Shown in pieces: positions 41,101 through 64,000 of a stretch of DNA of 64,000 nt. Numbering within the stretch: the stretch's first letter is position 1; each line of letters opens with the position of its first letter. Under the pieces are notes generated by a model that had not been told where the DNA came from, did not search any database, and worked only from the letters and a program-made list of their open reading frames with translations. A program made the position numbers and the translations under genes. Source of the DNA: Branchiostoma floridae (lineage: Eukaryota; Chordata; Leptocardii; Amphioxiformes; Branchiostomatidae); assembly GCF_000003815.2 (NCBI RefSeq), contig NC_049996.1, forward strand, positions 9,911,844 to 9,975,843, in the 5' to 3' direction.

Positions 41101-44100
41101 GAACACGATATACATGTACATTGTACACATCTATACGATCGATAAAGATATAATTTTTTTAGAAAAAACACGTAAAACATACAATTAAAAACTCGAGTCG
41201 AATTAAGAAATGTTTAACCGTTTTAATGAAAGATTATGTTTGTTCAATACTTAGCATCCAGTTGGACATGTGCTCGTTTAAATGCATACTTGTAGTTTTT
41301 ACGGATAACAGATTGTTATCATGTGTATCCATTGCGCACTTAAGACGTAACATATAATGCTCTCGTAGTACCACTACTACTTGTTGCACTCAAACCTGTA
41401 ATTTCATCATAAAAGTCCCATTTATGTGCCCACTTGTCCAGTGACCCCTGTTCACAGTAACATTGAAAAAGGACACTCGGTCAAGCTAAGGACGTTATGT
41501 TGTTTTGGTGAATTCAAATATGGCCATAGATATGTTAGGCACGCGCTGGTTATTTGGATACACCCACGAACATGGTGATTCTAAATCCTTCGTGACGAGT
41601 GGATCACTCGCCAAGCGCCACAGGCTCGTTAATTATGGCTAGGCGAACCCAGAGCTCTGAGCCAACCGTACCCTGTGCATCGAACGATATAAAATGCGTT
41701 GACGTCATCTGGTTACAAAACCGGTACCGTCTTCTCGGAAGGGGCGTCTCTCACATGGAACGACCCCCTCTGGCATCAGCAAATACCCCCTGACAACCCA
41801 TTTCCCAAAATCATTCACTCTAAAATAAAGAGCGACGATATTCAAACTCGTTGATGGAGGTTAGACTTTTTGGTAATAAGATACGCCAAATAGCAGTTAC
41901 TCAAGCCACTGGATATGATTTTGGAAACAGCCAGACGTTTCAGATAGCATCCGTTATCTTTATTTGTTTATTTATTTATTTGGAGAGCACGTTTTATATC
42001 TTAGTTTCTTAGTTAGGATATAAAACATGCTCTCCAACAAAGTCTCTGTAGTGTCACTGACGAAAGATAACGAATGTTATTTGAAACGTCTGGCCGTTAC
42101 CAAAATCATTTCACTGTAACTTTATTACAGTAGGTCCTTTGCTCTTCTGGATAACATCAAATACAGATGATTTCCAGATGCGTTACTTCTAGCTCACAAA
42201 ATAAAGATAAAACCTCGCTGTCTGCTTATCAATTGATGACTTTCTCTTTAGACCTCGCGACCCTATGACCAGGTCACAGTAGCATGGCGCGCGATCTTAT
42301 CTCAACTCCCATTAAACCCAAACAAAAGGTCCACTGACGGTTAGACTCTTCGACACTTGTTTGCTATAGTTTGATGCTGAACAGATATTATCTAGTCGTA
42401 TATTTCAGTGCAAAGCATATGTTAGACGTTTCAGTTTTAGTTGTCAGTATTTCAAAGGGTACAAGTCTTTAGAGGAAATACAGAAATGTATTCGAGCTGT
42501 GTAAGTTAGGCCTCTCCCCGGGGGCCAACAGACCATAGCAACGGGGATTATATAGCCAATGGATCTATATAACAACGCTTATTAAAGGCAATCTCACTCA
42601 TAAGACAATCAGCCTTTAGGGTCATTGTACGCTGTCTTTGTGGCTTCTCTTTCGATGCATCCATTGGTAAGCAAACGAAACAAAACAAAACAAAACAGCA
42701 CTTCAAGCAAGGAGGTTGATCATGAATTCAATATGAAAGCAAAGAGTGCTAGGCACTTAAAGAGGAAAGTGGTATCTTAATTATGTCAGTATTTCCAGTG
42801 ATAGAAATCTTTAGACGAGACATAGCAATGTATTCGAGTTGGTTGTTTAAGCCAGGCTTCGCCCTCAGGGTAGGGCCAGTAGACCATAGCAGTGGGGATT
42901 ATGCCGTCAATAGATAAATCTAAACAACGCTTATTAAGGGAGATCTCACTGATAAGGCGATCGGCTTTTGGGGTCATTGTACTCTAGCTCTGTCCTGTGA
43001 TTTCTGCTGTGGTACATCCATTCTATTGAGAAACAAACTAGCAAAACAGCATTTCAAACAAGGAAGTACAATTCAGTATGAACGGAAAGGGTCGCTAATT
43101 CAAAAGGAAAGTGGTATCTTGATTATGTATTATAATCATGCCGTTTTGGGCGCCGCCTCAGGGGCGAAGACATTGCAGTGCTGCTAATTAAAGTTTTTTT
43201 TTTCCACACAGATGATCAGCAGTGTGGTGGGGAATTTTACACCGACAACTATGACACGATCTCGTCCCCGGGATTCCCTGATCCATACACCCCTGGGGAC
43301 GACTGTATCTGGCACCTCAAGGTCCCAGAAGGTACGTACTGTTTTTGACTGTACTTGACATATGTATTCAAAATTTTGATTTGTTTATTTCAAAGACTTC
43401 AATCATCTATGCCTTGCCCACATACTGATACAAGCCGTGCGGTTTTATAGAATAATTATGTGTGGCTTATTTATTAGTAATACATCAAATTGTCATCATA
43501 AATTTCAACAAGAAAACTAGGAAAATTTCAATAAAGGATTCACGCCCAATAAGTGTATATCGCTATACAGATATATGGAAAGTAACAAAACGACTGAAGC
43601 GCCTCTGTGCGATCTTCGTAGTTACTTCACATTTACAGAGGATCGTACTAGATTCATAGAATAGACTTAAAAACTTGCAATTTTGTAATATTAACTTCGA
43701 TCTCTTGTTATTATTCCAGGTCACGTGGTCAAACTGACGTTTGCATACCTGGGAACCGATCCCTGGCCCCTTGCTCCGCAGAACTGTGCCCGGCACTACG
43801 TGGAGGTGTTCGACACACCTGACCGTGGGGGAGATCTTCTCGGTAAATACGATCTGATGAAAATTATTATTTTTTCATGTTGAATATATTTTATGTCATT
43901 TATTCATTCATAAATCCATACGTGACTAATATATGAGCATTTGGAAAACATACAACTTCGAAATAACAGACCAAGAACGATATCTTTACGTGTAGTAGTA
44001 GCCTTTTCCTCCGAGTCCATAAACAGGGATGTCTGTGTGTGTGTGTGTGTGTGTGTGTGATGTATGTTTGTGTAAAGCATGTGTAAACACAGCGTGCAAC

Positions 44101-46223
44101 GTAGCCAATGTGACAAAGGTGATCTGAAGTGTTTGTATTGTAATGAGATAAAGTGTAATGAGTAAAATGATTCAACATTACCATTGTCCATCTATTCTAG
44201 GCCGTTACTGCGGAAACATCATCCCTCCCGTGGTCCTGTCCACCGGAAACGCCATGTCGGTCAGGTTCATCACCAGCAGGTGGTCCACCAACATCCAGGG
44301 CTTCCACGGCTTCAAGGCCAAGTTCGCGAGCGTGCCGGAAGGAAGCAGTAAGTTTTCTTTCCTTGATAACATTACGCTCACTTGATGTTTTATGGGGCTT
44401 CTATCTTCCGAAGATTAACAGTTTCAAGGCAAACGATTCTGCGTATAGGTGCAATAGTTACAATTGGCGTAATTACTATAACCAACAAACTTTAACTGGT
44501 ATACACGTGGCCTTCAAAAAGACGACCCGCCAGTAGCCTGTCCTCGGTGCTGAAAACACCATCAACACAGACAGGCAGTTCGCTGCTGCACAATGCACAA
44601 TTTTCGACGCCAAGAGAGCAATAGTCTCAAGGCCAAGAGAGCAATGGTCTCTTGGCCTTGCTTCAAATTGTTGAAGGAATACAGTAGTTAGTAGTTCAGT
44701 AGCCATTTGTGTAAAATAGAACGATAGAAGTGAAAAGAATCTGACATACTCTTTCTCGACCCCTCCCGACCCGTGCAGTTGTTGAGAGCGGTTGCCGCAG
44801 TCCGCGGAAGATCACGGACCCCACCGGAACTCTGACGTCAATCCACTTCCCGTCGGACTATGAAGACATCGTGTGTAAGTGGGAGGTTATGGTGGAGCCC
44901 GGGCAGAACATCACTCTCAAGCTGCGCAGCTTCCAGTAAGTTTGTCATATTTCTGCGCTTCTATAGCTTTTCTTAAACTTTCAATGGCACACCGAAAAGA
45001 GGAGGGGTCCGTCCCGGTGTGATTGGATAAAACTATTTCGGCCATATGGAGTAGGGATTTTCTCCCGAGCAGCCTATTGATTCAGCTAGTCGAGCCTGCC
45101 AAAGGTTGATGTTTCTGACTTAGGGAGAAGGGACCGCCAGTGAGCGTTAGGTCAGTGCCCAGAAGTGGCCTATGTGCCATTGAACTGAGCAATCTCGCTA
45201 AAAATATTAATGACGTCCTCTTTCTTTTCCTCAGTTTCCTGTTTTGTAAAAGCTGTTATTGTTTCAACTACCATTCATAGAGGCGACTAACATTAATTAT
45301 ATGCAACATATATGGTCGTGAAGTCGTGAATATAAATATATGATCGTGTTCCTGTTATTTTTCAGTGTTGGAGGAATTTTCCCACTGAAGCCACTGTGTG
45401 ACGCTGAAACTGGCAGACTCACTGTCCACGATGGAGTTGGCAGTGACAAGAATCATCTGGGTAATTTGTTTTATTTATTTTCACATCAAACTAATCCAAA
45501 AAATGAACGTAATCCAGGCTCAATCTTAGTCATGATTGAAACAAGTTGACCTGTGAAAAATAAACTTATTGCACTACGTCATAGATCCCTGTGCACATGA
45601 GTTGATGATGAAGTATCGAGGCAATGCTCGAAGCATTTTGAGGTAGTTTTTCCCAAAGTTACAGAGGTACAAGTTACCGTAATTTGAATTGAACCAATCA
45701 CGTGCAGATACAGTTGTTTGATGTAAAACGGACCAATCATATGTCTCACTTTTCGTGATTTCCAGTGTCAATCTGCGGCAGAATGTCCGATGAGGAGACG
45801 TACTCTGTGACCACAGCGACCAATCAGATGACAGTTGAATTCAGGGCGGGAAACACCGGACCGTTCAAGGGCTTCTTCGCGACGTACCAATCCTCAGGTA
45901 GATAATCTTACAAATATTTAAGATATATTTTTTCTTTGTTCTTTTCTTCCTTTCTTTACAGAATTAGTAGCCTCTTTCTGCCATGACCAGTTATGGCAAC
46001 TCTTTGTATCTTTTCCAGTGTAAATCTGTTTTTCAAACATTCTAATGTTATACCGTTTGTAAATTTTTTTATATCATTTTTCGTCATTACAGGTTATCAA
46101 GTACTGCCCGGCGTTACTGAAGCTCAGGTCACAGGAAGCGCACATGCCCTACGGGCGCACTTCCCATGGTGCCTTTCGTGTCTCTTCGCCGCGGCCATCT
46201 TGTTGCTGCGCATCAACTTATAA
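36434..46223 (+). CDS. CUB gene B: secreted or GPI-anchored protein with two CUB domains
   Basis: Eight coding exons join in frame to 325 aa: 36434-36506, 43212-43331, 43720-43842, 44201-44347, 44779-44935, 45366-45460, 45766-45897 and 46093-46223 (TAA). All introns are phase 1 except the one after 44935 (phase 2). Exon 1 is a signal peptide (VLSVLFLLNWTSWIVGQ). CUB1 spans exons 2-4 (QCGGEFYT.., DDCIWHL, NCARHYVEVFD, RYCGN) and CUB2 exons 5-7 (SGCRSPRK.., VCKWEV, LCDAETGRLTVHDG, SICGR). QNIT in CUB2 is an N-glycosylation site. The last exon ends with a hydrophobic tail (WCLSCLFAAAILLL) and four further residues, suggesting GPI anchoring. Compared with gene A, the intron before the YCG motif is shared in both domains, while one further intron splits each domain here. 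CUB1 of both genes has C.RHY in place of the calcium-site Asp, supporting paralogy. Confidence 0.9.
37873..37979 (+). repeat. Tandem duplication, 54-bp unit
   Basis: AACAGCCAATTCGTAAAAAT..GTGTGGTGTATA occurs twice head to tail and apparently identical, beginning at about 37873 and 37927. It is in intron 1 of gene B, next to the TA microsatellite. Confidence 0.9.
38043..38102. repeat. (TA)n microsatellite
   Basis: About 30 uninterrupted TA units in intron 1 of gene B. Confidence 0.97.
38831..39041. mobile_element. MITE with TAGCCT..GGCTA ends, diverged 9-bp TSD
   Basis: The left end TAGCCTACTTCGCAGA pairs with the reverse of the right end TAGCCTCCATCGCCGA. Inner arms ATTTTATGGGGGAGTGCTG and CAGCGCTCCCCATAAAAT also pair. 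Flanks GCACTTAGC (38822-38830) and GCCCTTTGC (39042-39050) match at 7 of 9 positions. Confidence 0.75.
41882..42119. mobile_element. Fold-back element, TACGCCA family (copy 2) with nested hairpin
   Basis: It shares GGTTAGAC..AAGATACGCC, AGTTACTCAA and CAGACGT with copy 1 at 33718. Arms GATTTTGGAAACAGCCAGAC and complement close over a second hairpin in the loop, at about 41979-42038 (TTGGAGAGCACGTTTTATATC and its complement). Confidence 0.75.
42441..43128 (+). repeat. Tandem duplication, ~345-bp unit
   Basis: Two diverged copies (42441-42785 and 42786-43128) share GTCAGTATTTC.., TGTATTCGAG, AGACCATAGCA..GGGGATTAT, CAACGCTTATTAA and AGGAAAGTGGTATCTT. They lie just upstream of the first CUB exon of gene B. 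Confidence 0.85.
44038..44062 (+). repeat. TG dinucleotide microsatellite
   Basis: TG run in an intron of gene B. Confidence 0.9.
44538..44554 (-). promoter_or_regulatory. RE1/NRSE-like site 1
   Basis: The minus strand reads TTCAGCACCGAGGACAG. It fits the vertebrate REST-site consensus TYAGMRCCNNRGMSAG at every defined position. It is in the intron of gene B between 44347 and 44779. Confidence 0.5.
44608..44659. repeat. Short tandem and inverted repeat CCAAGAGAGCAATGGTCTC
   Basis: (G)GCCAAGAGAGCAAT(A/G)GTCTC occurs twice in tandem, and the second copy closes a hairpin with CTCTTGGCC. It is in an intron of gene B. Confidence 0.7.
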
Positions 46224-47430
46224 ATGACGTCATCTGTACATAAACGTATTCACTTATGGCTAGCCGTGGTTGATATTTGTACATCTCAGCAAACATAAAA
46301 GAGTAGAGACAGATTACATGGGCATCTTTAAACTATTGTCATACAGAGAAACTCTGATGTGATTGTAATTTTCATTGTGCTGGCTCTACAATAGAAGTGA
46401 CAGTGGTGGCCATTAAGTATCACATTGAGCGTTTCTCAACACAAACGAAATAATGTACATATGTATATACAAGAAAAGCTTGTAACGTCATCTCTATAAT
46501 TGGGATCGGCCCTGATTTGAACGGCTCAATTTGGAGAAAAGGCGGTTGACATTTTTGGTAGAACATTCAGCAACCAACAGCAAGAAATAAATGAAAGAAG
46601 AATACGCCATCTCTTGTATATAATTATAAAAGAGGAGTTGCTATGTAACCCAGCAATTTGCAGTGAGTGTCAAAACTGCTCAGTTTTTTAACTTTGCTGT
46701 TATTTCGTTACGTTGTTTGTACAAATGTGTGAACAGAATATATCATGTAAATAGCTACAATGATTTATGATACTTGTAGATGCGGATTTAAAAAAAAATA
46801 GTGTTCAAGCGTGTGAGGTACTTCACCAATATCGCATTTCCCAGAGAAACTCCCAGGCTTTACCAAATGTGTCATTTAATTTGTACTATTGCTTGTTGAA
46901 TATGACAAGTTGAAATTCTTAGCACAAGCACACGGTGGCGGTGTGGCACAACATTGTGAGCAGGCCAAAGAACTCTTTTTCAATGACTTTCTTATTAATC
47001 AAATATTAACTCTTTGCAGGTTTTTGAGCGACAATTTTCAAAGACTTTTCTCCTGACCATGTCCTCTTAACTGGCTATAATGTAATTTTGTACATATATC
47101 TATTGTTTGTTACACTGCCTAAGATCAATCATGTCTATTGTAAAAAGCGGATTGTTGCCTTGAATCAAGCAGGTTAACCTAATTGCTTTGGTTTGGCGAT
47201 TTTCAACTTATCCATTGTTTTGGACAGTGATTGTGTGTGAATTTTTCAAGGGGAGGGAAGTTCATGTATCATATGAATAAGGAAAATGGTTCGAAATGGC
47301 GGATGGATATCAATGTTATGAACTGCGATGATTGTAAATCATTTGTACATTTAAAAGAAAAAGACGATTGTTGATGGTGCTGTTGTCGTATGTTTTATTT
47401 CGGGCAAATAAAATTGCGTTGTTTTCTACA
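46224..47430 (+). other. Probable 3'UTR of CUB gene B
   Basis: AT-rich, with no coding gene. AATAAA occurs at 46586-46591 and 47407-47412; the latter is followed by GT/T-rich sequence (TTGCGTTGTTTTCTAC), so either could be the polyadenylation signal. Confidence 0.45.
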
Positions 47431-47779
47431 TCGTGAGTTTTGTCATGTGTGAGTACGCCTGGATTAGATTATTCCCGCATATACTGGAAAAATGGATATC
47501 TGAACAAATGCATCACCGTAACGTTAAACAGACACAAGCTTTGTTTTTAAGATCCATCTGTCTTGTCAACGAAAGTTGTTGGCATTTGCAAACGCTGCTA
47601 CACGCAAAAAATTCTCAGCATACATGTAACGTTACCTACTTACATATTGAGAATGGCTAATGTTCTGTTTCTCCATATAAAGTAAGAATATTACATTTTT
47701 TGAGAATAAATTGAAAACCTATAAAAATGCTCCTAGAACACACTCTCTGGGTTATCAGGCCACAAGACCGCATCACCTA

Positions 47780-47870
47780 GCGCGGAGTAATACCAGGAAG
47801 TCCGCACCGGCTTACCAACTTCCTGTCACACACAAACAAATCGATTAAAGGTGCTTTTCTTGGGGAAAAG
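47780..47870 (+). promoter_or_regulatory. Possible promoter with inverted ETS-type sites
   Basis: ACCAGGAAGT and ACTTCCTG face each other at 47793-47801 and 47818-47825 in a locally GC-rich patch. A pyrimidine tract GCTTTTCTT (47853-47861) 30 bp further on resembles an initiator of the TOP type. No gene start was found behind it. Confidence 0.25.
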
Positions 47871-47981
47871 AAAACAGTACACACTCAGCTGTAACGATCG
47901 TCAAAATAGAGACTAAAACTAAGGGGGAAACAATGATGATTTTCTTCTTACTTTCTGGATCTACTTTTTGTAACCCGGCAC

Positions 47982-47998
47982 CTGTCCTTGGTGCTGAA
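47982..47998 (-). promoter_or_regulatory. RE1/NRSE-like site 2
   Basis: The minus strand reads TTCAGCACCAAGGACAG, followed by GTGCC, which extends the match toward the canonical GGACAGCGCC end. Full match to the 16-bp consensus. Confidence 0.55.
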
Positions 47999-49410
47999 AC
48001 CACTTTCATGTAAATCAACCAAGCTCACATTCTCAGTTCACAGCCGTCCTGTAGTGTTATTCATCTTACTAAGTCTCCAGATTTGCGACTTGAAGTTTTT
48101 TCCAGTTTGCTAGTGATGTGATCGTCAACAATTTAATTGATTTATTCCCAGAAAACCTCTTGTTCTTGCGTGTGAAAGACCAAACTGTGCCAGTGTTTTG
48201 CTGCCCTCTTCAAGACTGTTCGAAATAAAGTCCCGACTTGCTCTGGCAAACCCATGTTACAAGTAGGTACAACATGTCTTCTGACCAATATAATAATATG
48301 ATACCGCAAGGAAATTTGTAACGTTACAGACTGAAGTGAGAGCTAGATAAAGTTATGATGTGAAACGTTGCTGAGTTATTTGTTGACGCTCCCATATGGG
48401 GGAGGTTGCCTTGGAGTCGTTCGGTACACGTAGAATGTTAGAACACGTTTTGTGGAGAACGTCAAGATTCTTTGTCGTGACGTTTGTGTTCATGTGATGT
48501 TCGAATATTCTAAGATCGAGCCGTTATTCATTCTATGTTCATTTTTTAATATTTGAACGTGATTTTGACGCTGGGACGAATTTGGTTTGGTATTCTCCTG
48601 AAGGATACCTGCGTTTGAGTATTTCTCATAGGAGCAAATTTTGCTCTCATTCCCTTTTCGTCAACTTGAGACAGCACTTCTAATAGTGCAGAAAGGATCT
48701 TTTCCTTCCAGTCACTTCTCATTTATTTTTTAAGTTTCCAAAGGATTCTAGAAAGGTGAGTGTGGCTAGTAGAGGTTTTAAACATACTAGAAAGCAAAAA
48801 GATGATTGATTCTAACTTTTTGACATCTTTTAGTTTTTGGAGTTATTCACTTGTACATGATCAGCTAAACTGATTTACTTGTGGTCTTTTGTTTCTGTGT
48901 TGATTTACCTGTAGGTACCTTGATGAAAGTTCCAGGTGTCTTGGCCGGACAGCAATAAAATGGGCCTTGAGTGCCCTTATGTATCATACAATGGAGGCTT
49001 CAGACTCTTACAGGTGTGTTTGTCTTGAAAATGTTGTCTTTGTTGTATATTTACATATTCTCACTGGTTCTCACAAAGTACAAACTTAGATAGTCAGTTA
49101 AATTTGCATGTGTATTGGAAGAGGTAGTGCTATGAGTATCAGCTGATATTCTTTTAAAAGATACCTAACATGTATCAAATCTATATATGTTTATTAAATT
49201 AAATCAAATTTGAATCCCTTATCCCTTGATCTTACACTGTATCACTTGTCCAGAATCTTTATGGTGCCCGAGTGAAGGTGTTCTATCCACAATATGACAA
49301 CATGAAATCTCAGCAGACCTGAAGTGACTGCATGAAGAAGATTAATGCTGAGATATGCACAGAAGTATTCTCTACACTTTGATTCTTCTGCCATTGAGAA
49401 CAGGTATGTA

Positions 49411-49973
49411 CGAGGGGCGGTCAATAAGTAATGCCCCTGACCCACTTCCAGTCGTCTGATCTAGATTTTGTCTGTGTAATGATTCATATCTTTATAGGTT
49501 ATGTTGCAAAAAACAGCTCTGAACTAATTGTGGTTTTTGATTTACTGGTGTTTGAACTGAGTCAGGTGCAAAATGGACCAGGTGTGAAATGGAACCAGTT
49601 GAGTGTCGCGCAGTGATCCAGTTTTTGTGTTTGAAAGGACGCACACCAAAGATGAAATGAAAGAAACTTATGGTGATGATGCCCCATCATATGACCTTGT
49701 AAAACGCTGGCATCCTGAATTCAAACATGGCCGGAAGTGTGCGGAAACAGCTCCCAGACCTGGTCGTCCCTCTTCTGCCATTGATGAGGCATCTGTTGGA
49801 GGACCAACCTGGGGTGTCCTACAAAAACTGTGTCCAGAGCTGCATCAAACAATGGGAGAAATGCATAACTCTGGGTGGTTCCTATGAAGAGAAAGGCTAA
49901 TAACTGTGCCAAGTTTCATTAATCTCCTGCTATGGAAAATGGGTCAGGGGCATTACTTATTGACCGCCCCTCG
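49411..49973 (+). mobile_element. Mariner transposon, internally deleted, TA target site
   Basis: Inverted ends CGAGGGGCGGTCAATAAGTA..GACCCA are flanked by TA at 49409-49410 and 49974-49975. Inside are the start of a mariner transposase (helix-turn-helix YGDDAPSYDLVKRW..EFKHGR, RPGRPSSA) and then, in another frame, its C-terminus (KQWEKCITLGGSYEE). The catalytic middle is missing, so the element is 563 bp rather than about 1.3 kb. It is non-autonomous. Confidence 0.92.
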
Positions 49974-50158
49974 TACAAGCACTAAAAGACTGCTCATGGT
50001 CTGTTCCATCATTGTTAAAGAATGAGACAATATCCTTTTTGAGCTAATATAATAAATACTGTTATTATCATGTAAATGTCTGCCAAAATACAGATCCTGG
50101 AGGTTTTGATTGTGATAACTCATTGCTTGTGATAACTCATTGCTTGTACTAACTCATG

Positions 50159-50179
50159 TTTTGATTTGATTTGATTTGT
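50159..50179 (+). repeat. (TTTGA)n microsatellite
   Basis: Four TTTGA units. Confidence 0.85.
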
Positions 50180-50884
50180 TAATATCTTCATCGTATACAG
50201 CTACATCAAGGTGTGGATTAGTGACAACAGTATGCACATCAAGTGTCCCCCAACAAAGGACATTTGGACTGTCCACCAGCCACTGAAGATGCCGTTCTGC
50301 AAGTATATTTAACAACCATGCAAGATGGTTCTGTGGCAGTTTGGGCAGCGTCGGCCAATAAGCTGTCTGCGTTAGCACTGTCACCGGATCGTCATCAAAA
50401 TTATCACTGGTATGCCCTTCTGTACTGGTCCTTGTGTAGATTGTTGCAAATAATCGACACTTCTGGATTCTGAAATGTGGAGACTCGTAATTTCTTTTTA
50501 AAAAAACTTCAGAGGGACGGTTTTTGATAGGAAAAACAAAACATTGACTATTAGATCTACTTTGAATAATGTAAAATATAAGTTAGTCTTTAGTTATGGT
50601 AGCTTAGAAGGCTGTAAAATGTGCTTGTCTTTCTGTTTGAGCTAGCAACTTATGCAACATAACAAAGTATAAAGTCCATGATGTTTTCCTACGGCATTGT
50701 TATAACAACGCATCTGTCAAATTCTTTTTAACTTTCTTTCTTAAATGTCTTATCTTAAATAGAACTGGAGATTTTATGAATCAATTAGGCTAAATATGTT
50801 ATCAGACATAGCTATGAATGACGTAATACTTTTCTACAATGCTGCTACATCATCATTTCTTGATATATTGTTATAGTATCAATC

Positions 50885-51200
50885 ATTTCAGAGTGCACAG
50901 ATAGACTGTGCTAGCGTCTTGCGATCACACAGAGAACACACAATGCTAGAGAGTCCAAAGTTGAGCTCCTTACAGTGAAGTCTAAATTTAGTGACATTTA
51001 AGCAATAATATTGTTATCTTAGTATGTCTCTCTCTTTCTCTCTCTCTTCATTGTATGACCATTTTAGAGTGCACAGATAGCACTGTCACATGATTTCACT
51101 GTCACATGAGTCCAAAGCTGAGCTTCATTACAGTGAAACTTTAGTTATTAGTATAACACTTAATTATTATGATATTACTGTTTTAGTGTGTCTATTACAC
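50885..51200 (+). repeat. Diverged tandem duplication, ~176-bp period
   Basis: ATTT(C/T)AGAGTGCACAGATAG, GAGTCCAAAG.TGAGCT and TTACAGTGAA occur in both copies, starting near 50887 and 51063. Confidence 0.75.
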
Positions 51201-52455
51201 AGCTTGATATGTCATCCAATTTCTCAAACCTTCTTCCAATAGATGAACCCCTAGATTAGAATCCTACTTTTATTTTTAACTGTAAACTCATGATTCACTC
51301 TGAGGTCAAATCAAAAGCCTTTACCACGGAGGTTGGAATTTAACCTCCTTGCCTTTATCTTTGGCACTATCAAAGTTATTTAGAATACTCCTTGTCAATA
51401 GAGTAACCTCGCAGAGAGGAGGAAAGGGCCACTAGAAAGTCCAATGAGTGAGTGAGTGGTGTCAGCATGTATAGACAAGGTTCTGCAGTTGACATGCTGA
51501 CACAAAAAGAAAGACAGTCACTTTTCTTCTTTTGAATGTCCCATATGTTTTTGAAAAGTTAGTACGCTTAAGCTTATTAGTACCTTACAGGAAGATAATT
51601 GATGCACCCTTCTGAGAAAAAATCAGAATAGGGAGAACAGACAAAATTGCATGAGACTGGTCCATGCGCCAAAGTCACTTTCCCATATTTCTTTTAACTC
51701 TTACCTTTTAAAGTTTATTTCTCTGACTGCACAAAGATATGCTGTGCTCCGCTGCTCTTGAAATTTCTCTCAAACCATTTGATCAACTGACTAGTACTCT
51801 TCCAGCACTGCAGCCCAACTCTTTGATCTTGATATTCATTTTTTCACCTTAAAGACTATAACAGCCTTACATGTATAATGTTAACAATAATCATACTTTT
51901 TGACCACTTTCTCCAGACACTGTTCTTTGCCTTTTCCTAAAGAAGTGCACTCTTATTTCATAGAACTTGCGTCTGCAAATTTCTTTAAATGGTGTAGCAT
52001 CAATTTCTACAGGTAATCGCTTGTCTGCTTTTGGTTCTCTTCTTAACGTTGGCTTTTCCTTCCAATTTTCTCATAATAAAAGATACGATTTAGCATTACA
52101 TGACAAAACAAAACAGAGCTTTTCAGAAGTAAATAGAACTGTTTCTGTCATAGATTTTCTTTTTGAAATATTAGTCATAACTTTAAGGTGCTTATTTCCA
52201 TGAGCTTCAGGATTTGGCTTCGCTTGACGTATCAAAACAGATCTATATCAAGTACTTTTTTCCAGGATCAGTCAACTGTGTTGGGTTTTAGACAACACTG
52301 CCACAGGCTTCTGCCTCGTGGTGTTTGAAACTAAGCATCTCTTCAGTTTCTTGGTACTGGTACATTCCGCTCTTTTTAAGCCACCATGCTCTGTGGCCTC
52401 AGCACCTTCTCTTTTTGTGTTCCATTTGCCCGATGATCATAACGGGCTCCGCATA

Positions 52456-52600
52456 GTCCCTCTTCTTCTCTTCTCGCAATCCGTCTCCTGAATACGTCAC
52501 TCTCCTTTTCTTCTCGCGATCCGTCTCCTGAATAGAGACTCTCTTTCTTCTTGCATTCGCCAGGACGAGTACCACATAGTCTCCTTTTCTGCTTGCGGTC
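52456..52600 (+). repeat. Pyrimidine-rich minisatellite
   Basis: Units of about 45-50 bp contain CTTCTCGC(A/G)ATCCGTCTCC and TGAATA, with two good copies and one or two decayed ones (TGCTTGCGGTCTGTCTACCG). Confidence 0.75.
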
Positions 52601-53059
52601 TGTCTACCGTATCACCGCTCTTGTTAGTTGAATCGCTATGAGTACCTACACAGCCAGAGGGTTAAGATGTTGGATCCCCCAAAGTTAAATGGAGAGTCTG
52701 TTTCAAACATCCTGTTCATTTCCTCTTAATATTTTAGCTAAGAACTTCCTTAAGTTGCATCTCCTCTGTGTACACTTTCATTTTCTTATGTCAGATAGTC
52801 AATTTTTAAGACATCATACTGTAACTGTATGTATCATTTTTTCATGAAATCGATCCACAAAAAGAAACATGAGACATTAATGTTTATTGAACACAATGCC
52901 ATGCAATTGACTGGATGAGTCTGACTATTGTCTCTAGTCCTTTCAATCCATAAAACTGTTTGTGATGTAAGTTTTAACTTTTGGTTCCTTATTTTCATGG
53001 GCTTGGATAACAACAGTGCAACAGTAAAAACGAACAAACACGTATTATAGTAACTATGA

Positions 53060-53735
53060 CTTGGATCTGATCCCCTGGACGTGTACCAGAATTTTGGTAC
53101 CAGTACCTAACCCGAGTTAGGACACTAATTTTTTACAGTCATTTATCCTCCCTGCAGTCTAGATACTGCTGGCATACCATCATCTCTATGACATGTTTGA
53201 TATTGTTACCATCGGTATCCTGTAGTATTCAGAAAAGTTCTTCTAGAGACTTACCTATTAGTAGTAAGTTCCCCCACTTTTAATGAAGTAAGAAATGTGC
53301 TCCTATATAAGTTTTACTCAACTCTAAATCTTAGGATCATAGTGCAATATAGTCCTGCTATGAACAAAAAAAACTAATAATAATGTGTAGCACTCACAGA
53401 AACCTGTACTAATCTTTTGCTCCATATGATATAGTACAACTTACAGTAAAATATAACTGTCATATAGTTTTGAATCTGATATTCTGGATCTGGACTAGAC
53501 CTGGACCAGAATTTTTGGTCCAGTACCCACCCCAAGTTAGAACACTAAATTTCTATGTCCATTTATCCACCCAGTCTGGAGACTGTGGGACCACCATTAC
53601 CACTATCATGTCATGTTTGATATTGTTACTATCTGTATCCTGTAGTATTCAGAAAACATTCTTCTAGAGACTAACCTATTAGTAAGTTCCCCCATTTTTA
53701 ATGAAGTAATAAATGTGCTTCTAATTTTTACTCCA
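53060..53735 (+). repeat. Diverged duplication, ~410-bp spacing
   Basis: Segments at 53060-53325 and 53475-53735 share ACCAGAATTTT.GGT, CAGTACC.A(C)CC, ATGTTTGATATTGTTAC, TATCCTGTAGTATTCAGAAA and AAGTTCCCCCA. Their left ends resemble the inverse of the repeat at 826. Confidence 0.85.
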
Positions 53736-54374
53736 AGATTGGCATCTATTTCTTCTTGATCCCTTATTGCTCTATTCATGTACCTTTAAGTTACCTTTAA
53801 ATCATTCTGTAGAGATTTGATGATTGCCTGAGCTCTACTTTTTTCAAGACTTGCACAGTTACAGTAACAGATGAAGTGTCACATTTCTAAGCTGGTTTGC
53901 TCACAATATCCTGTACTGTTTTGTATATTCAGGCACCTCATAGCTTATCGAGGGTTTGCGTTTTCCTACCAGAATCAGAAACTTTGATATTTCCAAATTG
54001 TTGTCCTGTCTTATCAAAGTGAAGATCTGTATTGTGTAAAATGTGAGATCTGATAGACTCTGTTGGGAGTTAAGACTATTTATAATCTCTGATGTTTGAG
54101 TTGAGATTCTTTAATCCTTGTTGCCAAATCTCAGCAACTCCATTGCTGTTCCACTACTTAAGTTTGTCTAATATAGACTCGAAAGCACTTCATTTTGAAT
54201 AGCGCCATCACATGTATTTGGTGAATGTGAATTTTTTATTGAAGGAAATATTATGATTATTGCTATGAAGGTTCTTGTTTATTTGGTATATCAAACCTTG
54301 TCATCTAGTTCTATCTAAACTGGACTACATTGTTATGCAAAAAGTGTGAAAATATTGAATCTTTCCTCTAAATC

Positions 54375-54391
54375 CTGTCCTTGGTACTGAA
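54375..54391 (-). promoter_or_regulatory. RE1/NRSE-like site 3 (one mismatch)
   Basis: The minus strand reads TTCAGTACCAAGGACAG. T replaces the consensus A/C at the fifth position of the 16-bp consensus. Confidence 0.4.
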
Positions 54392-54926
54392 ACTACAGTT
54401 TCATGAGAGTTGACGTACACGTCTTGGCGAATATTTTTGTTTTTGAAAGGTTTAAATCTTATTTAATCTTTTTCCACTTTTTGAAACCTAGACTAAGTAT
54501 CTTGCTTCAATTTGTCCTCTACAAAGATTTGTTATGGTAGATGATACATGTATGTATAGTTTATTGTATACATATATTTGGCAACTTTGTCAGGCATTAC
54601 ATACTGGTAGCTGTCTTGCACAATGACTTTTCCCAAATATGGCTTTTCCCAAATAACCAAATGAAGCAAACTGTTTCTGTAACTTTGTCTTCTTATTTCA
54701 CTCCCTAAAAGCCCCGCCATCTTGTTTGGTGACTGTTTCCTCTTCCACATAAGTTTCTGCTTTCTATTCTCACTGAAACATCATGATGTAGTTTGCATCA
54801 CAATAGAAAATAATCTTGACTTTTTTGTCCAGACCGTGACAATTTGTTGTTCCTATTCATGAGTATATTAGATCTTGTAACAGATGTCTGATAATCCACT
54901 GATCCTTACAACAAATGTATATGGAC

Positions 54927-55031
54927 TAGCCTGACTAAAATTGCGCCCCTAGCGGCCGGCCCTACGATTGCCGCCGCTTGGGGAGGGGGTCATTAAGCCC
55001 AGCCAGCAAGAGCTTGTGTCAACACAGGCTA
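54927..55031. mobile_element. Short MITE, TAGCCTG..CAGGCTA, TSD ATATGGAC
   Basis: A GC-rich 105-bp island in T-rich DNA with TAGCCTG inverted ends. ATATGGAC is present on both sides (54919-54926 and 55033-55040), one extra mismatched base making 9 bp. Confidence 0.8.
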
Positions 55032-56274
55032 GATATGGACATTCAACGGTATTCTTTTTTGGGGGGAACAGGTCAGACATAGGGTACTTAAACTTATTTC
55101 TGTCCATCCACTAAGTCTTAAACTTTCTGCATGCTTCTCATAAGGAAGCTCTCACAGGCATTTCACTTTCTCCAGACTGATATTCCAGGGAATAGAAAAA
55201 AATGTAGCATTCCCTTTCTTCCAGCTTCAATGAAATATAACTTGACTTCATGATTTTGTTTGTACATGTGATGATAGCCTAAATGCTACATTTGTCATTT
55301 CTTCACTTTCATTTCTAACATCTACTAAACTTTCCTGATCTCCTGAACCAGTAATTTCTAAGTGTTAGGGATTAACACTGGGACTTTTGAATAAGGAAAC
55401 ATCAATGACAGTGACAGTTATTCTGAACCTCAGCACCTCTGTTCATGTGAGATTGCATATATCTCTAGTATACTTAGCATTCAAAATATTTCGTTGACAG
55501 TCTGATTTGTTCTTTTTTGTCTCTTTGAATCTGTAGACGTTCTGTCCATACATTCTGTGAGCCACTATTAAACTTCTCTTTGGATTCAACTCAGCAACTG
55601 AACTTGCATATTAACAGATGAAGTTAAATTTACTGTAAGTGTTCTTGCTATGCTCACATTATTTGTTACTGCTAAAGTTAGTAGGATCTGTGTTAGAATC
55701 TGTGAACCTTTACCATTACAATGCTCCTGTTTTATCTAACAGCTATAGTATACATGGCTGGCAGTTGCAGCAAATTGTTGCTGACATTGCTTGCATTCAT
55801 TTTACCATGGTTTGCAAAATTCCTTCATATTGAACTCATTTTTGCCAGTTGAATCTACAATTTTTTCAGCATTCTAGATTTGTGTTTTCTAAATGGAAGT
55901 AATTCTTATTGAGTTTTTCCACAGACTTCACTGTTCCTATGTATTAGATAATATCAGCCAACTCCCAATTTCTATATCTTAAATAACGCCATGCAGTGCA
56001 AGTCCATTGCTATTAGTATTACGCTGTTGTTTCTACAGAGTCTTCTCCTTTAACAACATATTGAGATTCATTCTTGGTCTCTAGTCTCTGAGGAAGGAAA
56101 GGGAGGTTGACTTCCCAGTAGAAGTTACATAATACAATCAAAAACATTTCCTTTTTTTGCTATGAAGCTTCAATTGTTCTCTGTAGTTATTGGTGTCATC
56201 TTCTAGTCCTGTTTAAGAGTTCCCTCTATATACGGTATGTTAGAATTGTTGACATACTATATTGACTTTGAGTC

Positions 56275-56291
56275 CTGACCTTGGTGCTGAA
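56275..56291 (-). promoter_or_regulatory. RE1/NRSE-like site 4 (one mismatch)
   Basis: The minus strand reads TTCAGCACCAAGGTCAG. T replaces the A of GGACAG. Confidence 0.4.
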
Positions 56292-56830
56292 TTGAAGTTT
56301 GCCCCCAATACTATTTCAAATCTAAAGAAAGTGTCCAGCTTTCTTTATGTCTTGGGTCAATTCTTAGCTATCTGCTTCATTGCCTTGATACATGTAGTTG
56401 CCCAACAGTATTCACTGCATGATACCAAACTTTGTTTACACTGTGGAGGTATGATTGCCTTCTGACTGTAGTGACTTTCATTGGCAATTATCCTATCAAG
56501 CTACTACAAAAGTCATCATTTTCTGTACATAAAATGTACATTGGTGCTCAATTACTTGCCTTTGTTTGGGAAATGTATCATCGTGTCTTATTGAGACATG
56601 CATGTTCTTGAACAATGGACTATTTTCTGTAAACATGAAGTTGTCTGAGTGATTGAATGCTTCACTGATGACTGTGTGCACAGTAAGCCACAAAGTGTCA
56701 TCCAGAGTTTTTCATTTTGTGGGCTTGTCCAGACAAGTCTGTTAAGAGATTTCTTTTTACTGCTATAATAGTGCTAATGTCTAATTCGTTGTCAATGCTT
56801 TTTGATTTTTGAAGTTATGAATACTGAGTC

Positions 56831-56847
56831 CTGTCCTTGGTGCTGAA
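56831..56847 (-). promoter_or_regulatory. RE1/NRSE-like site 5
   Basis: The minus strand reads TTCAGCACCAAGGACAG, a full consensus match. Confidence 0.5.
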
Positions 56848-58332
56848 CTCACAATACTTCATCAGTTGTCCCTTTTGTATGTTCTGTAGTTTGATCATGA
56901 ACCAGAACCCAGATATGTGTCTACTGCATGGCACTGTATAGAGAATGTAATGTAGGACTATTGAGTAAACTATGTGACACTCAACAGTTCTAGTTGAACA
57001 TTCTGACAGTAGATGAATCCCAATTTTACATTGAAAATTACCATCCACTGGTTGATAGTTCTTCAATCTTTATATCTGCTAACATCGCCTGTACCATTGT
57101 TAGAGTCATCCACTTATTGAAACCCTTGTACTGTACAGAGTACTTTAAGAGTCTCCACTTTATTCTCACACTTTCTATCCCTTACAGCTGTATTTGTTAC
57201 ATGTCATATGATTTCTACTCTATGAAGATAATAACTTCATGTAGTAGGAAAATGCCTTAGGTTTCTCATGAGTGTGAATCTTAAGTATAAGGCCTTTTAT
57301 AAATATGCATCTACGACACATGATCAACTGTGGTCTAATACATGTACCAATACAGGTTTTCCTCCGCTTTTTCTTTTTCTCTGTTTTGCATTGAATTAAA
57401 TGATTGCTTTCTGTCTTTGATCAATTCTGCATCAACAAGAAAATGTTTTCAATCCTTCCTTTTCTTGCTGATTTTGCCTAAAATGTAAGTTTTTTTCAAC
57501 TGACAACTAACTGAGTTACTATTTCAACAAAATGTGCAAGTTTCCTCACTCTATTTCATTTAAGGGAATGGCATATACTGGTAAAAGTATTTCAGGACAA
57601 TATTTTTTATTTCTATGATACTCTCAAGAGAGGCTGTATACTATTTATCTGTATCACTGTCTGATGAAAGTAAGATTTGTCTTGCTCTTGCCTTCTTCAT
57701 TTCTTGACAGTTTGAGCTTCACTTTCTCCTTGGTTTGGATGTTTTTCTTGGAAACAAAGTTTGAAGCTCTTTAGATTAATGCATGCAAAACTTCATGCTG
57801 TTCGACTGCAGTGTAGAAATTTCTGGCATGTACCTACAGTAACTGTGTATTTTGTTGATGAAAGGCTTTGTCAATCTTCAAACATTCCCATATGAGCGTC
57901 TTAAACATCGTCATGCATATCTTTGAATTATAATGATCATGAGGTTTTTGAAGAGACAATATATCTCTTTGAATAAACTTGATTTTTGTTAAATCCAAGA
58001 ATATCAACCTTTTGATGAAATCTAAGTGTGGATCAGAATAACACATTGTAAAACTCTATCATGATACGGACCAAGTTTACATCCTTTAAACTCATCTGAC
58101 CATATTTTTTATTGTGATAAGTAGTAGGTACTCTGGACCAATTTTCCTAACCAAAAATGCTGAACGTTACAAAATGTTATGAGTCTTGTGGCCCACAGTA
58201 TTCCAGACATGAGGTGCATAACCTCACCTCTACCTTGTTTGAGTTCCTGAAACAGAAACAGATACTAGCTTTAAATAATTTTAATGTCCCAGACTGCAGG
58301 TGGGCACATTCAGCCTTTTGTTAACAAATTTG

Positions 58333-58790
58333 CTAAATTATGACTTCAGCTCCAATCATTTGCCATAAAGTCTACTTCCTTGTACATATCAGAACATTTC
58401 TGTTTCAAATATTCCTTTTGATTGCAACTATATGCTACACAATACAATGGTTTACACAATATTTCAATAGTTAATTCAGTTTCTGATAGATGCAATACTT
58501 TGTCATTTTGTGACATTGGTCAAGTCCAAGACCTTTTTATTCTTAAATTTCCCTTCCTAATCAGAATACTTAACATCCTAGTAAATGATTTTGGATGTCG
58601 TCAAATGGGCTAAATTATGACTTTAGATTCATCATACGCCATAGTCTATTCAAGTATTTCCTTTTACATATCAGAACCTTTCTGTTTCAAATATTTCTTT
58701 TTGATCACAATTGTATGCTGCATAATACTTGGTCTTTCAATAGTTTGATGGTTAATCCCCTTAGTATATCATAGACGAATGCATATCGCA
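58333..58790 (+). repeat. Diverged tandem duplication, ~277-bp period
   Basis: CTAAATTATGACTT, TTTCTGTTTCAAATATT and GGTTAAT-type words recur from 58333 and again from 58610. A further decayed copy starts near 59930. Confidence 0.75.
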
Positions 58791-60509
58791 ATTTTATATG
58801 CTGATCAGAAAGTATATCACGAGGCTTATCCTTCTGGCTATTCTTACCCTTTTCTGCAACTACCTGACCCGTGATGATAATAATGTCCTGGTAAATGGCA
58901 ATTGTGGAATGCGTTATTTGAAGAATACTATCTAATCTGAACTTCTTTTTCCAGCGACATGATTTTAGACCTTACCCTATGAACTCCTTATACATCTAAC
59001 CAACTTTATTGCTAAGTATTCTGTTTCTAGATATCACAAGTTGATGTTCATAATCATTTTTTCCAGGATTTGTGCATTATGTGTTTATATATATATTAAC
59101 AATTCCCCTTTGGTAGTACTGAAAGATTCTGCTGCCACATTTCTGGGATATTACATGTTTCAAAGCCTTTGACATTTTTTGCTTAAGCTCTGATGCAAAG
59201 AAAATCACTCAACATACAAAATAATGGCCGTCAGATTGGTCTGATCTGTTATTCGCCATATTAGGGAGAAAATTGTACTCTTGATTGGTCATTCAAAGAG
59301 CAGATTTCACAATTCTTTTTAAGGCTAAACTTTTACCTTGCAATTTTAAGAAGATTGCTCTGCTCTACTTCAGATTTCCTCTTTGCACTTTGGTCAAGTT
59401 TTCTTTCTTAGATGTTCTTCCACAAAAAAGATCTCTTCAGCACCTGGTGGATGAAATTCTTATCTGATTAAACTTCTCTGATTGTAAAAATACAATGATA
59501 TAGATGTAAAGATACAATGCTAACTGGTTGTCTTTGAAACAACAGCTGAAACATTCTGATGTAGCCTATGTACATAAAAACTTTACCAACCTTTTTTTTC
59601 ATATTAAGATATCAAGTTGAGGGCTATGGTTCTTCTTTGTTAATTATGCCATACTTTATTCAATTATGTAAATATATCCTATTACTTATACGTTAATAGT
59701 TGGTTATAGCTAGTTGCTGAATGATTAAGCTAGGAAAGGAAAGAGATCACGCCAGCTATGTTGGTTTATGTTGTATTTCGTTAGACTGCCACCCCTATAT
59801 TAAGTTGGTTCAGTCCGTCCCCCGACTTCTACAAGTCAGTCATTTGGAAATGTTGCATTTATGACGTCTCCAAGATGTTCCCTTTAGTGGTCTTACTACT
59901 GAACTGACGCAAGACGATAAGATACTTTCTGTTTCAAAATTTTCTGTTTGATCATAACTGTTTGCTGCACATTTCTTAATCTATGAAAAGTAATTTTTAT
60001 GGTTGAAGTAATTTGAACAAATGCATATTACAAATGTATATGCTTCAACAAAAAGAATCCAGAGCATTGTCTTCAGGCTATTTGTGACTATTTCTTCAAC
60101 TACCTGAAGAGCAGTCTTGTCCTGAAAAGTAAGCATCCAATAAGATTGATACAAGGTTATCTGATAGGTTGAGCATGTTTAGGTGAGGTTTTCCTGATAA
60201 GAATAATTCAAAACCTGAACTTTTTTCTATTGATATGTATTCTACTTCTTCTTCTGACTAATACTAGCTGCTTTTTGATTTAGTGGATTCTGAATATCTT
60301 TCATAGATATTAGGCCAGTGTCAGGCAAGAGACAACTATTTTGGACTTTATTCGTCTTTCTCTAGAATCTAAGTGCCCTACTTTCAAAGCTCTAACTAAC
60401 TAAATGATGGAATATTCAAGTCCTATATTTAAATTAATATTACTAGTTATTATTATCGATGAACAACTTAATCATTGTAACTCTATGTTGAAATTTGATC
60501 ATTTTGTTC

Positions 60510-60526
60510 CTGTCCTTGGTGCTGAA
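60510..60526 (-). promoter_or_regulatory. RE1/NRSE-like site 6
   Basis: The minus strand reads TTCAGCACCAAGGACAG, a full consensus match, in unit 1 of the 1-kb duplication. Confidence 0.5.
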
Positions 60527-60623
60527 ATCCGATATTTCAATATACTCGTCTTGTAAATATAACGTAAGATGGGTCAGGGCATATCAAGATTCTATAATAG
60601 TGTGATCAACACTGTTGATGTAT

Positions 60624-60793
60624 CAGGGCTCGAAATTCATTTTTGGCATTAGGTGCACTGGTGCACCCAGCTTAAAATATTGGGTGCACCAAAAATTTTT
60701 TGGGTGTAACACTTAAATTTAAGAAATAATTGGGTACACAGCTCTAGTTTTGGGTGCACCTGGGTGCACATGCACCCAGTATTTCGAGCCCTG
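60624..60793. mobile_element. MITE with CAGGGCTCGAAAT ends, 5-bp TSD TGTAT
   Basis: Inverted ends CAGGGCTCGAAAT and ATTTCGAGCCCTG enclose a GGTGCACC-rich interior. TGTAT flanks both sides. The paralogous unit 2 shows the empty site (GTTAGTGCATTATTGAG). Confidence 0.88.
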
Positions 60794-61333
60794 TGTATTA
60801 TTGAATCCAATGACAGTATTTCAACAGGCTGATGTCAAGAGGGATAAACCCATTGACTGCTGTCTTCTCTCTATTCTATAGTTTATCACATGTTAGTCTG
60901 TAGGATTATTTTGAGGAAAGTATCAATTCTCATTTGCTATGGTATTATCTCAATACAATGTGGAGCCTGGTCCAAGATGTCTAGAAGTTCATTCACATTT
61001 GCTTATTATTATTTTGAAAGAAGTATTCATCAATGCAAACAAATTTATTTTCAATCCTTCCCATTGTCGTACCATGAACTCCTCCTTGTCACCTTTGCCT
61101 AGATATTTTGTCAATGTGTTTTATTTATTTTGTCACTTTTAAGACTTTTCCTAATCAGTATTATGTAACATCATATTTTTTTTTTTTTTTTTCGTTTTTA
61201 GCCAGACAAACTTCAGTTTTGGGGATACCATTTTTGAATGCTATATGGTTTTACTGTGTGCCTCAAAGCACTCTTGCTTCAAACCATACATAATGCAAGT
61301 TTTTGACTTTATATGTCTTTCTCTGGAATCTTA

Positions 61334-61575
61334 GTGGCTTACTTTTAAAGTCTCTAACTAGTAATATTCAAGTCCTCTCTTTGATTTTGGTACTAAAAAT
61401 TCAGTTTATGTCGATATCAATTAATAATATATTGTAACTGTATGTTGAATTTGAGTGGCTTACTTTTAAAGTCTCTAACTAGTAATATTCAAGTCCTCTC
61501 TTTGATTTTGGTACTAAAAATTCAGTTTATGTCGATATCAATTAATAATATATTGTAACTGTATGTTGAATTTGA
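61334..61575 (+). repeat. 121-bp perfect tandem duplication
   Basis: GTGGCTTACTTTTAAAGTCT..TGTATGTTGAATTTGA is repeated at 61334-61454 and 61455-61575 with no difference seen by eye. Confidence 0.95.
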
Positions 61576-61586
61576 TCATTTTGTTC

Positions 61587-61603
61587 CTGTCCTTGGTGCT
61601 GAA
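61587..61603 (-). promoter_or_regulatory. RE1/NRSE-like site 7
   Basis: The minus strand reads TTCAGCACCAAGGACAG, identical to site 6, in unit 2 of the 1-kb duplication. Confidence 0.5.
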
Positions 61604-63389
61604 ATCCAATATGAAGTTTTTCAATATACTCGTCTTGTAAATATAACGTAAGATGGGTCAGGGCATATTAAGATTCTATAATAGTGTGATCAATACTGTT
61701 AGTGCATTATTGAGTCCAATGATAGTATTTCAACAAGCAGATGTCAAGAGGGATAAACCCATTGTCTGCTGTCTTCTCTCTATTCTATGGCTAACCGCAT
61801 TTTTGTCTGTAGGATTATTTTGAGGAAAGTACCAATTCTGGTTTGCAATGATATTATCTCAAGACAAAGTGGAGCCACATCCAAGATCTCTAGCAGTTAA
61901 TCTGCATATGCTCCTTATTATTTTGAAAGCAGTATCCAATAATGCAAGCAAATGTCCTTTCCATGGCATCTTCCCTTTGTTGTACCTTAAACTCTTCCTG
62001 TCAGCATTTCAGTTTCTGATAGACAGAACTCCTATCAATACTTTGTCATTTCTATGACACTGGTCAAGTCCAAGACCTTTTATTCTTAGATTTCCCTTCC
62101 TAATCAGAACACTGAACTTAGTGTCAAAATCCTAGACAAAGGAACTTGAAAATCTAGTTGTAATGTTGAAATCTTGATTGAGGACTTTTAGCCCTCTAGC
62201 TGTTGGATACTTAATAGTATATAAACATTGCTTCATTTTTTTTATGTCAGTGCAACAAAACTGCAGTTTTGGGGATACCATTTTCTGCTATATGGCCTGA
62301 CTGTTCCCCAAAGTACTCTTGCTTAAAAAGTTTTCATGATGCAACATTTTTTTTTGCAAACTTTCACTCTGGTGAGGTGTACCTTAATTCTATTCATTCT
62401 AACTTGTTTTTGTACTATACTATTCCGCTTAGCTGGTCCAATGACCCGAGATGTTGCTTTGGCTGAGACAGCCTGGGTGTTTTTCTGTGTATATTCTCAT
62501 TATGTAGGTCAGCCACAATCTTAACCAATGTGACTGTATTATCAAATGTACTAAGATTACTTCAATTTTTCCTAAACTTGGTATGTTTTATAAAGACAAA
62601 ATGCCCATGTCTTGCCTGACTACTTAAGGTGAAAAAATTTCCAGATCATTCCTTTGTGTAACAAAGTGGGCTCCCTGGCTACATTACGGTTGTGTAGAAA
62701 AATTGGCAGATGATGACATCTTTCATTGAAGTATTCTACTTGAGCTACATTAAAAGGCTACAGTTTGTGTTTGCAAGTCTTACTTACTCTGTGCATTCAG
62801 TATGCTATATAACTTAACATCTACTCTACTCAATGACTCTAATATATTAACTTAAAGTTGCCATCAAGTTTCTTTGAAATGTCCTGAAAAGTCCTCCCTA
62901 AAAGTTCTCTAAACTGCTATACCCCCCCCCCCTTTATGATTGCAATTCTAAGAAAATGTGTCCAAACCTACTACTTTTAATTTTGTTGATTCTGACATCA
63001 TCAAGCCAAACCCATGAGAAAAGTCATTGAGAATTCCTTCACTTTGGAAAGTGAACCCTTTCTTCATATGCCCAGGTTTCTACTTCCCATTGAACATTGT
63101 CTGAAAATTGGCATGGGTTTAAACTTAAGCTTTTTAATACTATTTCCTGTCTAACAAATTTGTAATGCTCTAATACATATTACTTTGTTTAAGACTTGAA
63201 TTTCCCAAAATGAGAAAATTAAAGCCTTATTCAGGAATAGACATGTTGTCATTAGTTTAATACATTCTATATGAATGTTCCTACCTTAGATTCACAGGTG
63301 CCCATTTCTAGATCTAAAGAGTAAGCTTCCTTTATATTTCTACAGTTCTCAGGTTATTTTTACTCACCTGTACCACCTGTCTTATCAAT

Positions 63390-63670: not shown

Positions 63671-64000
63671 CTTTAGCTTTGTTATTTCACTGAACAAAAA
63701 ACATAGAGATGTTTGCTATTAAACATGCCTGAGACAATGCAGGTGTGTAAAGACTATTCTCTAAAGTAAGCCTTATAATATTGTGCTTAACTGTTGAGGT
63801 TGATCCAAGGATATGTCTTGTAACCCACTGTTCAGTTTTCAACATTATACTCAGTGTGTCTCTGTTTTTCATGATGACTTTAAAAAAAATTTCATCTTTT
63901 TTTGTCACTCCCTTGAGATTAAATCCAAAGAGTTCAAATGATTGTTATGATATATACTATATACATATTGCATTACTACGCTATAATCTCATGCTGAAAG

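What the first reader, a model, noticed from the sequence alone, without database searches (positions are those of the whole stretch)
44538..61603. Seven co-oriented RE1/NRSE-like (REST) sites across 17 kb
A 17-bp word recurs at 44538, 47982, 54375, 56275, 56831, 60510 and 61587, always reading TTCAGCACCAAGGACAG (or a near variant) on the minus strand. This matches the vertebrate REST-binding consensus TYAGMRCCNNRGMSAG. Five copies match every defined base and two miss one. With equal base frequencies that consensus is expected once per about 4.2 million positions, so roughly 0.03 times on both strands here. Flanks have mostly diverged while the core is kept. Sites 6 and 7 share a recent duplication; the rest are not explained by an obvious repeat. 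A REST-type array in a lancelet-like genome, next to and inside a CUB gene, would be a silencer cluster not known to me.
Basis: partly seen in the sequence, partly recalled or inferred. Interest (0 to 1): 0.85.

Follow-up and report, generated by a model that had tools for sequence, protein, structure and literature searches.

The report
Genome-wide RE1-like sites, local cluster
Seven copies of the DNA word that the vertebrate nerve-gene repressor REST recognises are real, but they are a local cluster among about 7,400 exact copies scattered and tandemly repeated through what looks like a lancelet genome, which points to a large set of REST-type binding sites outside vertebrates.

Summary
Confirmed: the RE1-like 17-mer lies at all seven coordinates, all on the minus strand, far above chance. 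The "17-kb silencer array" reading does not hold up as stated. The genome (513 Mb, unnamed, lancelet-like by recall) holds 7,427 exact TTCAGCACCNNGGACAG, against 1 for the reversed control. The first 100 listed make 42 clusters, 31 of them single sites; extrapolated, about 2,500 loci. Flanks of 42 loci share little: a bare 17-18 bp motif, not a transposon. The window shows no tail of decayed copies. About nine of 41 fetched loci are tandem arrays, often of 43-bp period. Strands agree within 1 kb (56 of 56 pairs) but not beyond (23 of 43), so the window's co-orientation is weak evidence. Best reading: sites of a REST-type zinc-finger protein. Against a plain REST silencer system: no REST gene with matching recognition residues found in limited searches; 0 of 106 exact sites carry the vertebrate CGCC end; half-sites at 7-9 bp spacing are rare; some sites sit beside ordinary metabolic exons.

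The parts
44538..44554 (-). S1, RE1-like site TTCAGCACCGAGGACAG, between CUB-coding exons
   Evidence: CUB exons
47982..47998 (-). S2, exact RE1-like site, about 1.8 kb after the last likely CUB-gene exon (that exon judged by eye)
   Evidence: ORFs
54375..54391 (-). S3, TTCAGTACCAAGGACAG, one change
56275..56291 (-). S4, TTCAGCACCAAGGTCAG, one change; 556 bp from S5, shares only GACTCA after the core
56831..56847 (-). S5, exact
60510..60526 (-). S6, exact, in a local duplication with S7
61587..61603 (-). S7, exact, duplicate of S6
60365..61091 (.). Left copy of the local duplication carrying S6 (two pieces, 81 and 83% identity)
   Evidence: alignment
61447..62003 (.). Right copy of the local duplication carrying S7
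   Evidence: alignment
43136..45902 (+). CUB-domain exons (3 above Pfam cut-off, 1 below) of the gene whose intron holds S1

Best explanation
The seven sites belong to a genome-wide set of RE1-type binding sites (7,427 exact cores, roughly 2,500 loci by extrapolation) that a REST-type multi-finger zinc protein recognises through two contacts, TTCAGCACC and GGACAG, held two bases apart. Local duplication gives clusters and tandem arrays, often of about 43 bp period. The bound protein most likely acts as a repressor or chromatin organiser at each site. Shown: the motif, its abundance, its largely unrelated flanks, the lack of decayed copies in the window, local co-orientation. Inferred: the protein, its binding and its effect.
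For: Fixed positions are the RE1 core and the two free positions are those that RE1 leaves free (AA 53, AG 33, others 20 of 106 exact sites, many of them copies within arrays). 7,427 places against 1 for the reversed pattern. Flanks of 42 loci carry little information apart from +1 G, 23 of 42. Window mismatch spectrum 5, 2, 0, 1 for 0 to 3 mismatches with expectation 0, 0, 0.05, 1.2. In 6 of 7 tandem arrays the core is better kept than the spacer. Orientation random beyond 1 kb and Poisson-like spacing. RE1 binding outside vertebrates has precedent: the fly protein Charlatan bound a probe and was competed off by RE1 in PMC4777549 (passages read).
Against: No 1:1 REST gene found: family search, ZF3-8 search and ZF2-4 search give continua of lineage-specific fingers, and ten of the twelve best ZF3-8 hits, read finger by finger, show none of REST's contact-residue sets. 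0 of 106 exact sites, 0 of 42 taken one per locus, have CGCC after the core. Half-sites 7-9 bp apart: 127 places, of which 13 of the 100 listed are not simply canonical or near-canonical cores, about 0.2% of the canonical number though above the 3 expected by chance; in mammals about 12% are rearranged (PMC4777549). Near 31 single-type sites there is an excess of copies with 2 to 4 mismatches (3, 10, 33 against 0.3, 3.0, 21.8), as decay or local repeats would give. Arrays with over 40 copies (L013) are odd for a silencer. Neighbours include carboxylesterase and molybdopterin-domain exons. No CpG-context preference.
Confidence: 0.6

Rival explanations
1. A short dispersed and tandem repeat without regulatory role: a minisatellite-like unit of about 43 bp whose 17-bp core spreads and is homogenised by repair or slippage; likeness to RE1 is then coincidental or a relic.
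For: Arrays L013, L027, L028 and L032 share a 43-bp period; 3 of 41 single-type sites (34 from fetched loci, 7 of the window) keep a similar flank, 0.28 expected; sites within 1 kb always agree in strand, 56 of 56; excess of copies with 2 to 4 mismatches near single-type sites.
Against: 38 of 41 single-type sites have no such flank; flanks carry little information; no decayed intermediates in the window; the exact agreement with RE1, including the free two-base gap, would be accidental.
Confidence: 0.2
2. The sites are bound not by a REST orthologue but by one of the many lineage-specific REST-like C2H2 proteins, with another role such as insulation, chromosome architecture or marking of recombination.
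For: 422 matches to REST fingers 3-8 in the genome with a continuum of scores and changed contact residues in the ten proteins read; presence beside ordinary metabolic exons; lack of the CGCC end and rarity of other spacings.
Against: Identity of 15 fixed positions with vertebrate RE1 argues for shared descent of the recognition; the searches scored only 150 of 4,010, 4,870 and 5,762 first-look candidates, exon by exon, so a true orthologue could be missed.
Confidence: 0.17
3. An RNA-level element (splicing, small-RNA pairing) that needs one strand within a transcription unit.
For: All seven copies here are on one strand.
Against: They extend past the + strand CUB gene, and strand agreement beyond 1 kb elsewhere is 23 of 43; no Rfam match in the window at gathering thresholds.
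Confidence: 0.03

Closest known systems
Vertebrate RE1/NRSE (REST/NRSF site)
   Same: TTCAGCACC, two free bases, GGACAG; single dispersed sites with unrelated flanks; number of loci of the same order (about 2,000 characterised in mammals, PMC4777549 passages; about 2,500 here by extrapolation)
   Different: No CGCC end in 106 of 106 exact sites; G preferred at +1 and A at the first free base; 7-9 bp half-site spacings rare; tandem arrays at about 9 of 41 fetched loci
Drosophila Charlatan binding element
   Same: REST-like zinc finger outside vertebrates that binds RE1-type DNA (PMC4777549 passages)
   Different: Its consensus was not compared with these sites here; no Charlatan relative was sought
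Amphioxus 'mirage' minisatellites
   Same: Short tandem repeats reported in several lancelet genes (PMC3087553 and PMC3902484 passages)
   Different: Mirages are duplications of exon-intron boundaries; the arrays here share one 17-bp core

Membership tests
RE1/NRSE | 17-bp two-part core TTCAGCACC-N2-GGACAG | tested here: met
RE1/NRSE | 21-bp form ending in GCGCC | tested here: not met
   0 of 106 exact sites in 42 loci have CGCC at +1 to +4, best 3 of 4 letters at 4 sites; the genome-wide count was asked and never answered
RE1/NRSE | Non-canonical half-site spacings also used (gap range recalled) | tested here: not met
   127 places for a 7-9 bp gap, reversed control 0; 13 of the 100 listed are not simply canonical or near-canonical cores, about 3 expected by chance genome-wide
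RE1/NRSE | Bound by REST and represses in non-neural cells | not testable with these tools
   needs ChIP or reporter assays
RE1/NRSE | Enriched near neuronal genes | not tested
   planned, genome search mostly unavailable; ten ORFs chosen by eye near sites gave 3 with Pfam hits, none neuronal
REST/NRSF protein present | Orthologue with the same finger contact residues | tested here: inconclusive
   query and contact-position rule recalled; only 150 candidates scored per search
Transposable element family | Homologous flanks around the core | tested here: not met
   in the window only S6/S7 share flanks
Minisatellite | Tandem head-to-tail units | tested here: inconclusive
   met at about 9 of 41 fetched loci, not met at most others nor between the window's sites

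The most novel reading that the evidence does not exclude
A cephalochordate carries an RE1-site system at least as large as the mammalian one, built partly as RE1 minisatellites, bound by a REST-type or derived zinc-finger protein and used for general chromatin organisation rather than only for silencing nerve genes, so that the RE1 code predates vertebrates.
Probability: 0.4. Interest if true: 0.8.

Novelty: new variant of a known kind. Interest (0 to 1): 0.6.

Why it matters
REST is described as conserved in vertebrates (PMC5573535, passage read). Thousands of exact RE1 cores in a non-vertebrate chordate-like genome would date the site and its reader to before vertebrates, give a clean system for asking how a long binding site multiplies, and make the link between RE1 number, tandem arrays and chromatin directly testable. 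My ten paper searches showed no paper on RE1 sites in lancelets among the titles and abstracts listed; some listings were cut (20 of 227, 12 of 106), and most subscription papers are not held, so this is not proof that none exists.

Tried and rejected
Protein-coding motif: on the + strand the word reads PVLGAE, but flanks differ, the three single changes are one silent and two not, and array periods of 43 bp are not multiples of three; rejected. Transposon core: rejected by nearly empty flanks. CpG or methylated-domain preference: no difference, p 0.71. Flank partner motif: best upstream 5-mer ACAGC, 9 of 39 against 8 of 156, p 1.6e-3 uncorrected, not taken up. Mirage minisatellites: different sort of repeat. 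REST orthologue: C16:18106451 (L069) and nine others read and not accepted. Rfam and tRNA scans of the window: nothing. Amphioxus functional-genomics paper PMC6292497: no hit for REST, NRSF or zinc finger in the main text. Johnson 2009 and Mortazavi 2006 are not held.

Not done: neuronal-gene enrichment, genome-wide one-mismatch count, genome-wide 21-mer count (asked, not answered), ZF6-8 search.

Full report
Observation. Pattern searches put the word at all seven stated coordinates on the minus strand. In the window the counts of TTCAGCACCNNGGACAG at 0, 1, 2, 3 and 4 mismatches are 5, 2, 0, 1 and 12, where 40 first-order Markov simulations give means of 0, 0, 0.05, 1.2 and 9.3. So there are seven near-perfect copies and then background, with no decaying tail. 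The word is the only source of non-low-complexity 12-mers found five or more times in the 64 kb. The base after the core is G in 7 of 7.

Flanks. With the core masked, 600-bp flanks give no match at E below 0.01 except S6 with S7; S4 and S5 match only because their windows overlap. The S6/S7 units are a local duplication of 81 to 83% identity, with 94 to 98% next to the core. S2 and S3 share a weak 32-bp match (87.5%) that includes the core.

Genome. The window is C18:9911844-9975843 of a 513,431,437-base genome in 431 contigs. The exact word with two free bases has 3,462 forward and 3,965 reverse places; the reversed pattern has 1. Only the first 100 places are listed, all on C1 up to 8.73 Mb. 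They make 42 clusters at 3 kb, 31 of them single sites, 4.8 per Mb, with variance to mean 0.85 in 250-kb bins; this extrapolates to about 2,470 loci.

Anatomy of the loci. I hold 41 loci that cover all 42 clusters. With the window, one exact site per locus gives a profile of 42. The 15 fixed core positions are fixed by the search pattern itself, so only the two free bases and the flanks are informative there. The base after the core is G in 23 of 42 (0.43 bit). The flanks are low: most columns are under 0.1 bit, several between -16 and -2 reach 0.14 to 0.19, and the highest are -33 (A in 26 of 42, 0.31 bit) and column 40 from the first core base (0.24 bit). Eleven of 41 loci have two or more exact sites; about nine are tandem arrays with spacings of 24 to 68 bp, often 43. 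L013 holds 43 copies at up to 2 mismatches. Of eight arrays given, one had too few units; in 6 of the other 7 the core is more uniform than the spacer, in L045 only just, and L037 is equal. Units were chosen by core likeness, which favours this result somewhat. In 31 single-type loci (105 kb, chosen because they hold an exact site) counts at 0 to 4 mismatches were 35, 10, 3, 10, 33 against 0, 0, 0.3, 3.0, 21.8 expected; so degraded copies do exist near sites elsewhere, against a purely all-or-none picture.

Orientation. Neighbouring sites within 1 kb agree in strand in 56 of 56 pairs, at 1-5 kb in 1 of 2, 5-20 kb in 2 of 4, 20-100 kb in 7 of 13, and beyond in 13 of 24. With S4/S5 and S6/S7 taken as local pairs, five independent units on one strand has probability 0.06. 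Four exact clusters in 17 kb would be expected about 0.2 times in the genome. The window is a dense patch, not a proven array.

Context. S1 lies between CUB exons of a + strand gene. S3 to S7 lie in a CpG-depleted, AT-rich stretch that starts near 48 kb. The fetched sites do not prefer that context: 24 of 41 site loci against 10 of 20 pieces of 1.5 kb at positions I picked have CpG ratio under 0.5, p 0.71. Of ten ORFs near sites that I chose by eye from the 45 longest listed, three had Pfam hits: carboxylesterase, molybdopterin-binding domain, C2. By eye one more looked like PDCD2 and one like V-ATPase subunit A (recalled, no Pfam hit). None is a classic neuronal REST target.

The reader protein. 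Pfam's REST-like finger model gives 21 matches over cut-off, best 32.7 bits, and none in 14 control genomes; the recalled human segment itself scores 37.2. A recalled human REST ZF3-8 query gives 422 matches, best 153.8 bits, 44% over 1-165. Ten of the twelve best loci were read: they belong to a large expansion, and no finger in them shows any of the REST contact-residue sets (positions by the usual C2H2 rule, recalled). ZF2-4 gives 153 matches, best 65.4 bits at 41%, again a continuum. Each search scored only 150 first-look candidates and ignores introns, so a split orthologue may be missed.

Site grammar. Half-sites 7 to 9 bp apart occur 127 times, reversed control 0. Of the 100 listed, 87 are canonical or near-canonical cores (up to 2 changes in GGACAG) followed by a second GGACAG, and 13 are not, against about 3 expected by chance. 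That is a small excess over chance but about 0.2% of the canonical number. Mammals are reported to have about 12% rearranged sites (PMC4777549, passages). None of 106 exact sites carries CGCC. The site here is therefore the RE1 core in a narrower form.

Judgement. The agreement of an abundant, nearly flank-free, two-part word with RE1, free positions included, is best explained by a shared type of reader. The protein, the binding and the silencing are inference. The claim of a special silencer array in this window is not supported; the genome-wide set is the real finding.

Noticed in passing
window 48000-64000: Sharp change of composition: CpG observed/expected falls from about 0.8 to 0.1-0.5 and GC to about 0.35, as in a methylated domain or a long intron of a gene beyond the window.
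   Followed up: partly
window 49407-49977: 41-bp inverted repeat (97.6%, 49407-49447 and 49937-49977) around an ORF with a weak HTH_48 hit below cut-off: a short mariner-like remnant.
   Followed up: partly
G000 contigs C158, C10, C16, C323, C200 and others: Very large expansion of REST-like C2H2 zinc-finger proteins, 422 matches to REST fingers 3-8.
   Followed up: partly
L021 308-1861: Seven co-oriented copies (up to 2 mismatches) in 1.5 kb with different flanks; three of the seven read TTCAGCACCAAGGAAAG.
   Followed up: no
L037 973-1707: Array of 13 sites at up to 2 mismatches, often TTCAG(G/A/C)ACCATGGACA(T/G), with a half-unit of 24 bp.
   Followed up: no
42 loci, 33 bp before the core: A in 26 of 42 loci, the highest flank column (0.31 bit).
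   Followed up: no
window 61326-61575: 121-bp tandem repeat of about two copies directly beside S7.
   Followed up: no
window 2032-2487 (-): ORF that looks like part of a Penelope-type reverse transcriptase (by eye; not tested).
   Followed up: no
window 26946-28492: Further ORFs that look CUB-like on the + strand upstream of the tested CUB exons (by eye; not tested).
   Followed up: no
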